Source: Salinibacter pepae (GTDB lineage: Bacteria > Bacteroidota > Rhodothermia > Rhodothermales > Salinibacteraceae). From it: a stretch of 64,000 nt of DNA. The stretch covers positions 2,632,501 through 2,696,500 of the forward strand of contig NZ_CAMTTE010000001.1 in NCBI RefSeq assembly GCF_947077775.1, in the 5' to 3' direction. Below, piece after piece: positions 56,391 through 58,143 of this stretch (its first letter is position 1; each line of letters begins with the position of its first letter). Under the pieces are notes generated by a model, which was not told the DNA's origin, did not search any database, and was given only the letters and a program-made list of their open reading frames with translations. Position numbers and translations under genes: made by a program.

Positions 56391-56607
56391 AGGGAAGGGG
56401 GTGAGACGAACCTGGGCGAGAGTCGACGAGCTGAGCGTTATGTCCCAGACATCGTTGCCTTAGCCAAAAGCGTTGACCTCCGTAACCTGCGCGGCGCGTC
56501 GGGGACGCTATCGCATGATTCGATGACGGCGGAGGAGATTGATCGGACCCTGTACGAAAGCAGAAAACCCGATGAATGAGGCTGATCCGGCATTAATGGA
56601 CAAGTAG
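56391..56607 (+). pseudogene. Remnant of a VapBC-like toxin-antitoxin module
   Basis: Within the gap after the dehydrogenase, a frame with no usable start encodes RYVPDIVALAKSVDLRNLRG and, further on, MTAEEIDRTLYESRKPDE before a TGA at 56577-56579. This looks like the C-terminal half of a small antitoxin. An overlapping ATG at 56572 begins MNEADPALMDK and stops at 56605-56607, resembling the first residues of a PIN-type toxin cut off before its acidic core. The antitoxin lacks its N-terminus and the toxin nearly everything, so both appear dead. The family assignment is inference from short segments. Confidence 0.5.
56425..56498. repeat. Degenerate copy of the 3' end and flank of the second DUF2283 gene
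   Basis: 56425-56498 aligns with 58028-58100: both share GAGCTGAGCGTTA, then CAGACATCGT, and end in AACCTGCGCGGCGCG. In the 3' copy this covers the end of the DUF2283 gene at 57857 plus the first bases of its downstream flank. In the 5' copy it falls inside the antitoxin-like remnant and is read in a different frame. This marks the block 56425-58100 as flanked by related sequence, as left by duplication or recombination. Confidence 0.6.
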
Positions 56608-56673: not shown

Positions 56674-56991
56674 ATGGCACCGTCGGAGCCGGGTGAGTTT
56701 GCCCTTACGGATGACCATTTCCATTCGCACGTGCGCCGCCGAATGGAACAACGGGGCGTGTCGAAAGAAGAGGTACGGGGGACGATCAACGCAGGATGGG
56801 AGGCGACAGACGCGAAACCGGGCACGGAAGGACGTACCTTGGTGTTTTCGTACGACGCGGTGTGGGAGGGAACGCACTACGACGAGAAAGAGGTCACCGT
56901 GTATTTCAAGATTGAGGAGGATGACCTGATTCTTTTGACTGTGCTCGCCCGATACGGAACCGATTTTCCCCGCGAAGGAGGTACACAATGA
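56674..56991 (+). CDS. DUF4258 domain protein, first copy
   Basis: A 105-residue soluble protein. DHFHSHVRRRMEQRGVSKEEV near the N-terminus and TVLARYGTDF near the C-terminus fit the DUF4258 pattern (a basic HxxxRMxxRGI helix, then a beta-rich core). DUF4258 proteins are small and often found in toxin-antitoxin-like gene pairs; activity is not established to my knowledge. GAGAGG precedes the ATG at 56674. Its stop overlaps the DUF2283 start by 4 bases (ATGA), so the two are translationally coupled. Confidence 0.8.
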   Translation: MAPSEPGEFALTDDHFHSHVRRRMEQRGVSKEEVRGTINAGWEATDAKPGTEGRTLVFSYDAVWEGTHYDEKEVTVYFKIEEDDLILLTVLARYGTDFPREGGTQ

Positions 56992-57215
56992 AGGTAGAAT
57001 ACGACCCGGCGCGTGATCTGCTTTATTTATGGCTGGCCGCACCTGGTACGGCGGCGGCCCGCACAGAGACCGTTTCGCCCGGCGTGCATGCGGATTTTGA
57101 CCGAGATGGGCGCCTCATTGGACTGGAGGTGCTCGACGCCTCTGACGTGCTTCAGGACAACGTCCAGTTTGAGGTCGATCTCGACATCCCAACGCATGCC
57201 ACACCAGCCTCCTAA
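56988..57215 (+). CDS. DUF2283 domain protein, first copy
   Basis: A protein of 75 residues. MKVEYDPARDLLYLWL and the later HADFDRDGRLIGLEVLDASD match the DUF2283 pattern: an MKxxYDxxxDxLYxxL strand pair followed by a D-x-G-x-xxGxEVLDAS segment. Function is unknown. It overlaps the DUF4258 gene by 4 bases. It is a distant paralogue of the product at 57857, which shares the MKVxYD start and little else. The C-terminus ends in a short polar tail (IPTHATPAS). Confidence 0.8.
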   Translation: MKVEYDPARDLLYLWLAAPGTAAARTETVSPGVHADFDRDGRLIGLEVLDASDVLQDNVQFEVDLDIPTHATPAS

Positions 57216-57329
57216 ACGGATGCTGAATCTCCCGACAATCGTCACAAGACGCTCATCTGGCGAAGGAGGATCGTCTGAGCGGGGCGGGGATGGTGGCGTG
57301 CGTGTCTATAAATCCGATGCAGAAACACC

Positions 57330-57395
57330 ATGACGAAAGAGGCCCTGCGAGAAGAATTGGTTCGCGAACTGGATCATCTGTCGGTCGGGCAGTAG
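57330..57395 (+). pseudogene. Truncated antitoxin-like reading frame
   Basis: From an ATG at 57330 the frame reads MTKEALREELVRELDHLSVG, then Q and a TAG at 57393-57395. This resembles the N-terminal helix of small antitoxins that continue with a Q-x-x-VLDF-type segment; here the stop falls where that segment would begin, and the frame after it (KAVHQPIDTF) no longer resembles the family. It lies between the two DUF4258/DUF2283 pairs. Short length makes the family call weak. Confidence 0.4.
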
Positions 57396-57597
57396 AAGGC
57401 GGTGCATCAGCCGATCGACACGTTCAAGGGGGCAACTGTGCAGATGATGCTCAATCAGAGGGCTGTTCGAGACATTCGAGAGTTGCTGTCATCGGTGTCC
57501 AAACTGCTTTCGGAGACGACTGAGAAGAGTCAAAAATGGATCGGCTGTAATCGATGGGCGTCTCCGGTGGGGCATCCACGCTCAAACACGTGCTGAT
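57396..57597. other. Gene-free stretch before the second DUF4258 gene
   Basis: A frame continuing from the stopped antitoxin-like sequence reads ATVQMMLNQRAVRDIRELLS and runs to a stop at 57594-57596. It has no start of its own and no recognisable family. I take it as remnant or non-coding sequence. The preceding 57216-57329 holds nothing recognisable. Confidence 0.35.
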
Positions 57598-57852
57598 ATG
57601 GACATTGTGTGGACCAAGCACGCTGAAGAACGGCAGGAACAGTGGAACGAGAAGCGGGGAATCACCCGAAACGAGATTGAAGATGTTATCGGCGATCCAG
57701 GGCAGGTGGTTTCGGGGCACGGAGACGCCGAGGTTGATCAGAAACGACGGGGACCGGGGCTGATTCGGGTTCCGTTCGTTCGGGAGGGGTCGGAACGGAT
57801 TCTTCTCACGGTGTATTGGACCAGCGACGTTGACAAATACTGGAACGACTGA
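57598..57852 (+). CDS. DUF4258 domain protein, second copy
   Basis: An 84-residue protein. MDIVWTKHAEERQEQWNEKR gives the basic helix, ITRNEIEDVIGDPGQVV follows, and the C-terminal ILLTVYWTSDVDKYWND replaces the TVLARYGTDF of the first copy. Similarity between copies is limited to this pattern, so they are old paralogues or independent members. It ends 4 bases before the ATG of the second DUF2283 gene. Confidence 0.78.
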   Translation: MDIVWTKHAEERQEQWNEKRGITRNEIEDVIGDPGQVVSGHGDAEVDQKRRGPGLIRVPFVREGSERILLTVYWTSDVDKYWND

Positions 57853-57856
57853 GCCC

Positions 57857-58087
57857 ATGAAGGTAACCTATGATTCGGAGGCCGACGTGCTTTGTCTCGT
57901 GTTGCGGGACGAGCCGCCCCTCAATGCCGTAGAGGAGCCGAACGGGGTGGTCGTGAGCTACGGAGAAGATGGGGAGCCTGTAAGCGTCGAGTTCTTGAAC
58001 GCCGCGGCGCGAAACTTGACGACGGCCGATGAGCTGAGCGTTACGGTGCAGACATCGTCCCCTCGGCCAGAAACGACGACCTCATAA
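57857..58087 (+). CDS. DUF2283 domain protein, second copy
   Basis: A 76-residue protein. MKVTYDSEADVLCLVLRDEP and GVVVSYGEDGEPVSVEFLNA fit DUF2283, although the usual LYxxL is LCLVL. A C-terminal extension (TTADELSVTVQTSSPRPE) has a decayed match at 56425-56498. It is the second member of the repeated DUF4258-DUF2283 order, here with a 4-base gap instead of an overlap. Start ATG 57857 is preferred to an in-frame upstream start at 57830 because it opens the conserved strand. Confidence 0.78.
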   Translation: MKVTYDSEADVLCLVLRDEPPLNAVEEPNGVVVSYGEDGEPVSVEFLNAAARNLTTADELSVTVQTSSPRPETTTS

Positions 58088-58143
58088 CCTGCGCGGCGCG
58101 ATGTACCGTGCTGCTACAGATGTTGAGTTGATTCATAATCGCG

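What the first reader, a model, noticed from the sequence alone, without database searches (positions are those of the whole stretch)
56674..58087. Two consecutive DUF4258/DUF2283 gene pairs
Both pairs keep the order DUF4258 then DUF2283 with a 4-base overlap or a 4-base gap. The copies are divergent, so this is not a recent duplication, yet a third partial match of the DUF2283 end lies at 56425-56498. Repeated, coupled small pairs surrounded by antitoxin-like wreckage are what one expects of a toxin-antitoxin or defence module whose biochemistry is, to my knowledge, not described.
Basis: partly seen in the sequence, partly recalled or inferred. Interest (0 to 1): 0.6.

Follow-up and report, generated by a model that had tools for sequence, protein, structure and literature searches.

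The report
Paired small toxin–antitoxin-like genes
Two side-by-side pairs of tiny genes look like toxin-antitoxin modules in which a poorly known RNA-cutting-type toxin (DUF4258) is held in check by an unstudied partner protein (DUF2283), a pairing also seen in many other bacteria, on plasmids and in viral contigs, whose action I found no test of.

Summary
Pair 1 overlaps by 4 bases, pair 2 has a 4-base gap. Pfam calls DUF4258 for A1, DUF2283 for B1 and B2, and DUF4258 only weakly (below cut-off) for A2. The third remnant, 56407-56498, is real. Adjacency is conserved: in 296 phylum genomes, 30 DUF4258-to-DUF2283 neighbours, none reversed or on opposite strands, about 0.01 expected. Of 88 loci fetched by DUF2283, 51 have an intact DUF4258-type frame upstream, 45 with exactly a 4-base overlap; 18 have only a broken or partial one beside an open DUF2283 frame. 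The A1 model resembles BrnT/RelE-type toxins best, moderately. DUF2283 also follows ParE on two plasmids and is fused to an HTH domain behind a Gp49-like frame. Best reading: a type II-like toxin-antitoxin module with an undescribed antitoxin family. DUF4258 is already in print as a BECR toxin family of unknown activity; no held paper contains 'DUF2283'. Toxicity and neutralisation are not shown, and the window's own copies may be decaying. A dedicated defence role has little support.

The parts
56407..56498 (+). Remnant of a third DUF2283 3' end plus the bases after its stop; direct repeat of 58010-58100
   Evidence: 77% identity over 92 columns, score 48 against a maximum of 20 in 500 shuffles; also found as D1/D3
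56674..56991 (+). A1, DUF4258 protein (105 aa), proposed toxin of pair 1
   Evidence: Pfam 32 bits, over cut-off; AlphaFold model pLDDT 70.6, best structural match BrnT toxin, Z 6.9
56988..57215 (+). B1, DUF2283 protein (75 aa), proposed antitoxin of pair 1, 4-base ATGA overlap with A1
   Evidence: Pfam 56.8 bits; AlphaFold pLDDT 84.4, five strands, a short helix and a less confident C-terminal tail
57330..57599 (+). Small frame interrupted by an in-frame TAG, between the two pairs; looks like a dead short gene
   Evidence: translation; no Pfam match for either piece
57598..57852 (+). A2, DUF4258-like protein (84 aa), proposed toxin of pair 2
   Evidence: Pfam 19.5 bits, E 0.0013, below cut-off; a relative with stops lies at the same chromosomal place in sister genome G007
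57857..58087 (+). B2, DUF2283 protein (76 aa), proposed antitoxin of pair 2, 4 bases after A2
   Evidence: Pfam 44.1 bits

Best explanation
Each pair is a two-gene, type II-like toxin-antitoxin module written toxin first. The DUF4258 protein is a small BECR-fold (BrnT/RelE-like) toxin, most likely an RNase that stops translation. The DUF2283 protein, probably translated in a coupled way from the overlapping or adjoining start, is a small beta-sheet antitoxin that binds and blocks it. The modules sit in a variable exopolysaccharide gene cluster, where they are gained, stacked and lost by decay. Shown here by computation: gene anatomy, conserved adjacency, order and overlap, broken upstream genes beside open DUF2283 frames, fold resemblance, other toxin families in the same slot. 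Inferred: toxicity, RNase activity, neutralisation by direct binding, addiction. The confidence given is for the family being a toxin-antitoxin pair; whether the window's own copies are still active is treated as a rival that can be true at the same time.
For: (1) In 296 phylum genomes, 30 DUF4258-DUF2283 neighbours in 23 genomes, 0 reversed, 0 on opposite strands, about 0.01 expected. (2) Of 88 loci fetched by DUF2283, 51 have an intact DUF4258-type frame upstream (one of them, L178, 405 bases away), 45 of the 51 with exactly a 4-base overlap. (3) One-sided decay: 18 of the 88 have a stop-bearing, frameshifted or truncated upstream gene beside an open DUF2283 frame of 66 residues or more; the DUF2283 frame itself is short in 1 of 88 (L191). 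Conversely 35 of 36 matches of this DUF4258 subtype in 296 genomes have DUF2283 directly downstream (the script scored 34, the 35th was missed because the two matches overlap by 4 bases). (4) Fold: 31 of the first 33 VIA-align rows for A1 have titles that name a toxin, a toxin-antitoxin complex or a CDI system, BrnT first. (5) DUF2283 also follows Pfam ParE_toxin proteins on two Acidiphilium plasmids (64.4 and 34.6 bits) and is continuous with an HTH_3 domain behind a Gp49-like frame. (6) 35 of 57 DUF4258 loci have, by a CxxC pattern of mine, a YgiT/MqsA-like protein in the same downstream slot. (7) Small Thermus plasmids carry the pair; their DUF4258 proteins are A1's only plasmid matches at E <= 1 and their DUF2283 is B1's best. 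(8) One locus stacks three DUF2283 genes around an NTP_transf_2/HEPN pair. (9) Passages in print: DUF4258 among BECR toxin families (PMC11980606), a CdiA-CT class marked 'tRNase (?)' (PMC11630599), failed cloning that the authors thought might be due to DUF4258 toxicity (PMC9232590).
Against: No toxicity or binding data were found. A1 lacks six of ten nearly invariant columns of the alignment with the DUF2283-linked subtype (A20, W33, P44, D50, L74, R75; it keeps H19, R27, V76, R100), so activity here is uncertain. A2 is below Pfam's cut-off. The structural match is moderate (Z 6.9, below 8) and Foldseek alone gave no match with E <= 0.001. B1 shows no DNA-binding domain in Pfam. In the phylum, 80 of 128 DUF2283 hits had no DUF4258 neighbour at the thresholds used; 20 of 59 loci had none in a relaxed look; L017 and L018 show no toxin-like neighbour. 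PMC11980606 gives antitoxin-first order for DUF4258 and PMC4963859 lists a DUF4258 with a HicB partner upstream. PMC8790059 assigns DUF4258/CdiA to DNA breakage, not RNA. Broken frames in draft metagenome assemblies may include sequencing errors, and intact DUF2283 was a condition of the search.
Confidence: 0.77

Rival explanations
1. The pairs are dead or dying remnants of such modules in this genome: open frames that no longer make an active toxin. (Compatible with the best explanation for the family.)
For: Fragments around them; sister genome G004 keeps only a DUF2283 3'-end scar at this place and G007 an A2-like frame with stops; A1 lacks six of ten nearly invariant columns.
Against: All four frames are open; B1 and B2 keep strong profile scores; codon-position G+C looks coding, GC2 0.39-0.44 and GC3 0.63-0.73.
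Confidence: 0.3
2. DUF4258-DUF2283 is a coupled pair with another joint role, for example a two-subunit enzyme or regulator, and not a toxin-antitoxin pair.
For: No growth experiment was found for any DUF4258-DUF2283 pair; the fold match is moderate; DUF2283 has no clear structural relative.
Against: Broken upstream genes beside open DUF2283 frames in 18 of 88 loci; ParE, Gp49-like and DUF5615 neighbours in the same slot; patchy presence, 68 of 296 genomes for DUF2283; small plasmids.
Confidence: 0.12
3. It is a dedicated anti-phage defence system.
For: Some toxin-antitoxin pairs act by abortive infection (general knowledge); a Microvirga plasmid pair lies by TIR-domain and reverse-transcriptase genes; L267 has a TIR-type gene with PADLOC matches (best E 6.6e-12) between two DUF2283 genes; 7 of 8 IMG/VR loci carry an intact upstream frame.
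Against: No PADLOC family matched the four window proteins or five relatives, two of them ParE; the window's neighbours are exopolysaccharide genes, and the only PADLOC matches among four of them are of the ABC transporter to mad3/mad8 models.
Confidence: 0.1

Closest known systems
DUF4258 (PF14076) BECR-fold toxins as listed in PMC11980606, with MqsA/YgiT-type partner
   Same: A1 is a member by Pfam; in 35 of 57 DUF4258 loci a YgiT/MqsA-like protein lies in the same downstream slot
   Different: The partner here is DUF2283, with no CxxC zinc-finger pattern; the passages seen name only MqsA fusions for DUF4258 and give gene order A/T
BrnT-BrnA
   Same: Best structural match of A1 is BrnT 3u97 (Z 6.9); toxin gene first (T/A for BrnT in PMC11980606)
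   Different: BrnA has a ribbon-helix-helix domain (recalled); B1 and B2 match only DUF2283
RelE/ParE-type toxin followed by DUF2283 on Acidiphilium plasmids
   Same: DUF2283 directly downstream of a RelE/ParE-superfamily toxin gene
   Different: The toxin there is Pfam ParE_toxin, not DUF4258
CdiA-CT class 8 with DUF4258 (PMC11630599, passage)
   Same: Same toxin domain, marked 'tRNase (?)'
   Different: A delivered inter-bacterial toxin domain, not a free intracellular pair; its immunity protein was not compared here

Membership tests
PF14076 DUF4258 | A1: whole-protein score over Pfam cut-off of 25 bits | tested here: met
   A1 32 bits
PF14076 DUF4258 | A2: whole-protein score over Pfam cut-off of 25 bits | tested here: not met
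   A2 19.5 bits, E 0.0013; its place before DUF2283 and a broken relative in G007 are the added support
PF10049 DUF2283 | Whole-protein score over Pfam cut-off of 23 bits | tested here: met
   B1 56.8, B2 44.1 bits
BECR-fold toxin superfamily (RelE/ParE/BrnT) | BECR fold | tested here: inconclusive
   A1 model pLDDT 70.6; top VIA-align rows are toxins of this group but Z 6.9 or less; Foldseek none with E <= 0.001
Type II toxin-antitoxin system | Small adjacent, co-oriented gene pair conserved across genomes | tested here: met
Type II toxin-antitoxin system | First product inhibits growth; second neutralises it by direct binding | not testable with these tools
   needs expression and binding assays
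BrnTA | Antitoxin with ribbon-helix-helix domain (recalled) | tested here: not met
   B1 and B2 match only DUF2283 in Pfam
DUF4258-MqsA/YgiT pair | CxxC...CxxC zinc-finger antitoxin downstream | tested here: not met
   B1 and B2 sequences lack the pattern; 35 of 57 DUF4258 loci elsewhere have it
Known anti-phage defence system | PADLOC model match | tested here: not met
   0 of 4 pair proteins matched

The most novel reading that the evidence does not exclude
DUF2283 is an undescribed, general-purpose antitoxin family: a small beta-sheet neutraliser without its own DNA-binding domain that has been attached to several different toxin families (DUF4258, ParE, perhaps PBECR2-like and DUF5615 PIN-like), sometimes joined to an HTH domain, and spread across many bacterial phyla, plasmids and viral contigs.
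Probability: 0.5. Interest if true: 0.65.

Novelty: new variant of a known kind. Interest (0 to 1): 0.52.

Why it matters
Toxin-antitoxin modules are typed largely by their antitoxins. If DUF2283 is an antitoxin family, many proteins now called unknown gain a testable role, and the DUF4258 toxins, called undescribed in print, gain a defined partner and a simple assay (express the first gene with and without the second). The decay pattern, with the upstream gene broken and the downstream gene kept, is a genome-level sign of toxicity that can be checked in any genome collection.

Tried and rejected
Foldseek alone on the A1 model was uninformative: designed proteins and NTF2-like folds lead the list at E 0.09 and up, with a few ParE2 chains at E 0.68-0.77; only the realignment of Foldseek's own matches brought out the RelE/BrnT group. 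B1 found no clear structural relative: best VIA-align rows are 9a77_B (Z 5.6, itself an integrative model) and the CdiI-complex chain 7vmc_C (Z 4.6). PDB sequence searches with A1, B1 and both family profiles gave nothing credible. Promoter and terminator scans found none; the sigma-70 model may not fit this organism. A natural DUF4258-DUF2283 fusion that could stand in for a complex model was sought; the one in-frame case (L179) is a frameshifted locus. Distances among A and among B proteins correlate strongly (Spearman 0.88 over 54 pairs, permutation maximum 0.31; 0.81 over 23 less similar pairs, maximum 0.53), but two genes of one operon correlate by linkage alone, so this is not used as proof of binding. 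The lower G+C of the pairs is no sign of transfer by itself: the genes downstream are at 0.60 and 0.50.

Whether the block of about 1.6 kb was inserted between two repeats or lost from G004 by recombination could not be decided: G004 holds one copy of the repeat next to both flanks.

Biases: the six DUF2283 rows of the genome contigs and viral query (A2) all had a DUF4258-type match upstream, so 51 of 88 is not an unbiased frequency; that scan kept the best 80 of 467 confirmed candidates, and two of the eight viral loci (L206, L207) look like near copies. The count uses Pfam models and is free of this. A5 was built from DUF2283-linked genes. A1 and A2 were rows of the pairA model and A1's domain of the d4258 model, so the window's own scores with these are circular; the 39 of 59 include the window's two pairs and some doubtful hits (L016, L076).

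The structure counts: VIA-align looked only at Foldseek's 1000 best chains and showed 50 entries; 29 of 57 against 35 of 57 style comparisons were not made. Of the 57 loci, seven have DUF2283 downstream instead, and the CxxC pattern is mine, not a Pfam test.

Papers: PMC11980606, PMC10790755, PMC4963859, PMC4861877, PMC8790059, PMC6521040, PMC2701414, PMC11630599, PMC9232590 and PMC6733907 were seen as passages only; all others only as search listings; supplements were not searched. COG5428 and IPR019270 as names of DUF2283 are recalled. PMC6733907 calls PF10049 a calcineurin-like family in one Bdellovibrio operon, which fits no result here.

Full report
What is there. The window's 3.63 Mb genome (G000) has one DUF4258 and two DUF2283 Pfam matches at E <= 0.001, all at this place. 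The four frames are A1 56674-56991, B1 56988-57215, A2 57598-57852 and B2 57857-58087, all on the + strand. A1 and B1 share the four bases ATGA; A2 and B2 are separated by four bases. Pfam scores: A1 DUF4258 32 bits, B1 DUF2283 56.8, B2 DUF2283 44.1, A2 DUF4258 19.5 (below the cut-off of 25). PADLOC gives nothing, NCBIfam nothing credible. The two pairs are divergent paralogues. The pairs lie in an exopolysaccharide-type cluster: upstream a glycosyl transferase family 4 protein and a UDP-glucose/GDP-mannose dehydrogenase, downstream a Wzz chain-length protein and an ABC transporter (Pfam).

Local history. In sister genome G004 the matches to the two flanks are 65 bases apart, against about 1.67 kb in the window, and one copy of the 3'-end repeat remains. 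In G007 an A2-like frame containing stop codons and a B1-like C-terminal fragment (64.5% identical over 31 residues) occupy the same place. So at least three genomes of the genus, the window's included, hold DUF2283-type genes or their remains here, and the site is in flux. G042, in the same order, has a 125,133-base contig of the same length and hit coordinates as plasmid pRMAR01 of Rhodothermus marinus DSM 4252, so the window comes from a member of the Rhodothermales; Salinibacter is my guess and was not tested.

Is the pairing conserved? In 296 phylum genomes Pfam finds 125 DUF4258 matches in 86 genomes and 128 DUF2283 matches in 68 genomes; 40 genomes have both. Thirty are DUF4258-then-DUF2283 on one strand within 400 bases, in 23 genomes; none is reversed and none is on opposite strands within 1000 bases; about 0.01 would be expected by chance. 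With a profile of the DUF2283-linked DUF4258 subtype (A5), 36 matches appear in 27 of 296 genomes. The script scored 34 with DUF2283 directly downstream; a 35th (G354 C52) was missed only because the two matches overlap by four bases; the one exception is G328 C33. The union of both methods gives 48 of 128 DUF2283 matches, in 34 genomes, with a DUF4258-type gene upstream. In a relaxed look at 59 DUF2283 loci (30, 29), 39 have some DUF4258-type match upstream, the window's two included, and 20 have none.

Beyond the phylum. A scan of genome contigs (one genome per species) with six DUF2283 sequences gave 467 relatives, of which the best 80 were kept, by their titles from Chloroflexi, Nitrospira, Thermus, Planctomycetota, Verrucomicrobia, Spirochaetia, Proteobacteria and others; IMG/VR gave 8. 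Of these 88 loci, 51 have an intact DUF4258-type frame upstream (44 of 80 and 7 of 8; one of them 405 bases away), 18 a broken or partial one, 14 none, and 5 are at contig edges or lack a start. Spacing is exactly a 4-base overlap in 45 of the 51, as in the window's first pair. In the 18, the upstream gene has stops, frameshifts or truncations while the DUF2283 frame is open over 66 residues or more; in all 88 the DUF2283 frame is short in one, L191. Because loci were fetched by DUF2283, an intact DUF2283 is partly a selection effect, and draft assemblies may hold errors; the reverse search (35 of 36, above) shows that this DUF4258 subtype is rarely seen without DUF2283. Together they give the asymmetry expected if the first gene is harmful without the second.

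Partners. Eight of 18 plasmid hits were opened. Three show annotated DUF4258 then DUF2283 (two Thermus plasmids, one Microvirga plasmid, the last with a 4-base overlap). Two Acidiphilium plasmids show a RelE/ParE-annotated gene directly before DUF2283, which Pfam confirms as ParE_toxin at 34.6 and 64.4 bits. The other three show an unannotated 76-aa neighbour (L124), no partner upstream in the stretch shown (L123), or a RelE/HTH pair with a gap of about 240 bases (L125). A1's only plasmid matches at E <= 1 are the Thermus DUF4258 proteins (37.5-39%), whose neighbour is also B1's best match (49%): the two genes travel together. In L271 one 196-aa frame holds HTH_3 (51.1 bits) followed by DUF2283 (64.3 bits), after a Gp49-like frame (22.4 bits, just under its cut-off of 23.9). 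In L266 three DUF2283 genes each follow a small gene: one weakly PBECR2 (E 0.051), one weakly DUF4258 (19.5 bits), one a short form without a credible Pfam match; an NTP_transf_2 and HEPN gene pair lies among them. One DUF2283 follows a DUF5615 gene (62.7 bits). Two loci have DUF2442 upstream of DUF2283 (L065, L068; Pfam run on L065 only). Conversely, 35 of 57 DUF4258 loci have a YgiT/MqsA-like CxxC protein in the downstream slot, by pattern. DUF2283 and the MqsA-like proteins thus occupy the same place next to related genes.

Defence. PADLOC matched none of the four proteins. Of four flanking genes only the ABC transporter matched, to mad3 and mad8 models, most likely as an ABC ATPase. Two relatives do lie by defence-like genes: TIR and reverse-transcriptase genes on the Microvirga plasmid, and a TIR-type gene in L267. 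This is too little to call it a defence system.

Structure. The A1 model (50-row alignment, window and the search for related loci proteins only) has mean pLDDT 70.6 and an H-H-E-E-E order. Foldseek alone gave no match with E <= 0.001. Realignment of its matches ranks BrnT first (3u97, Z 6.9, 2.6 A over 76 residues), and 31 of the first 33 titles name a toxin, a toxin-antitoxin complex or a CDI system. These Z values are below the level at which a match stands alone; the consistency of the list and the published placement of DUF4258 in this fold class make it credible. B1 is modelled well (pLDDT 84.4) as five strands, a short helix and a less confident tail, without a clear structural relative.

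How it likely works. Step 1 (inferred): the DUF4258 protein is a BECR-type RNase. The His and Arg of the first helix region (H19 and R27 in A1) are nearly invariant in the DUF2283-linked subtype and present in most rows of the other subtype. Step 2 (anatomy shown): the DUF2283 start overlaps the toxin stop, so the two are probably translated in a coupled way. Step 3 (inferred): DUF2283 covers the toxin. Step 4 (inferred): loss of the pair, or a drop of the antitoxin, frees the toxin, which favours retention on plasmids and in variable gene clusters. That the window's own copies are already inactive is a serious possibility, because A1 lacks six of ten nearly invariant columns and the place is full of fragments.

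Known and new. Passages of PMC11980606 list DUF4258 among 13 BECR toxin families, activity unknown, gene order A/T, 'undescribed in the literature', and count 17 DUF4258-MqsA fusions. PMC11630599 marks a CdiA-CT class with DUF4258 as 'tRNase (?)', and PMC9232590 reports failed cloning that might be due to DUF4258 toxicity. PMC10790755 found DUF4258 partners strictly downstream in E. coli; PMC4963859 lists one with a HicB partner in A-T order; PMC8790059 assigns DUF4258/CdiA to DNA breakage. For DUF2283, searches for DUF2283, COG5428, PF10049 and IPR019270 found no paper on a toxin-antitoxin role (the two PF10049 hits are a bamboo taxonomy paper and a Bdellovibrio paper). The toxin half is therefore known in outline and the antitoxin half appears new: a new variant of a known kind.

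Noticed in passing
L271:1418-2240: A Gp49/HigB-like frame followed by one 196-aa frame in which an HTH_3 domain is continuous with a DUF2283 domain: an antitoxin that may combine DNA binding and DUF2283.
   Followed up: partly
L266:816-4054: A dense locus with three DUF2283 genes, each behind a different small gene, around an NTP_transf_2/HEPN pair and a weakly CopG-like gene.
   Followed up: partly
L267:1410-2354 and L120:1-1916: TIR-type gene between two DUF2283 genes (L267, PADLOC matches); TIR and reverse-transcriptase genes beside the Microvirga plasmid pair.
   Followed up: partly
L072, L088, L029 upstream of DUF2283: A short protein (about 47-61 aa) resembling the C-terminal half of the DUF2283-linked DUF4258 ('..GETVHNAFFDRS' type in L072 and L088), without a credible Pfam match where tested (L088).
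   Followed up: no
L017, L018, L028: A DUF2283 subfamily starting 'V(W/Y)YD.E.DYLEVLFE' with no clear toxin-like neighbour in L017 and L018; it may do something else.
   Followed up: no
L024 (100-aa frame just before DUF2283) and L266:816-1133: Two proteins that look alike and, for L266 only, weakly match PBECR2 (E 0.051), directly before DUF2283.
   Followed up: partly
window 57330-57599: A small frame broken by TAG between the two pairs; its two pieces have no Pfam match.
   Followed up: partly
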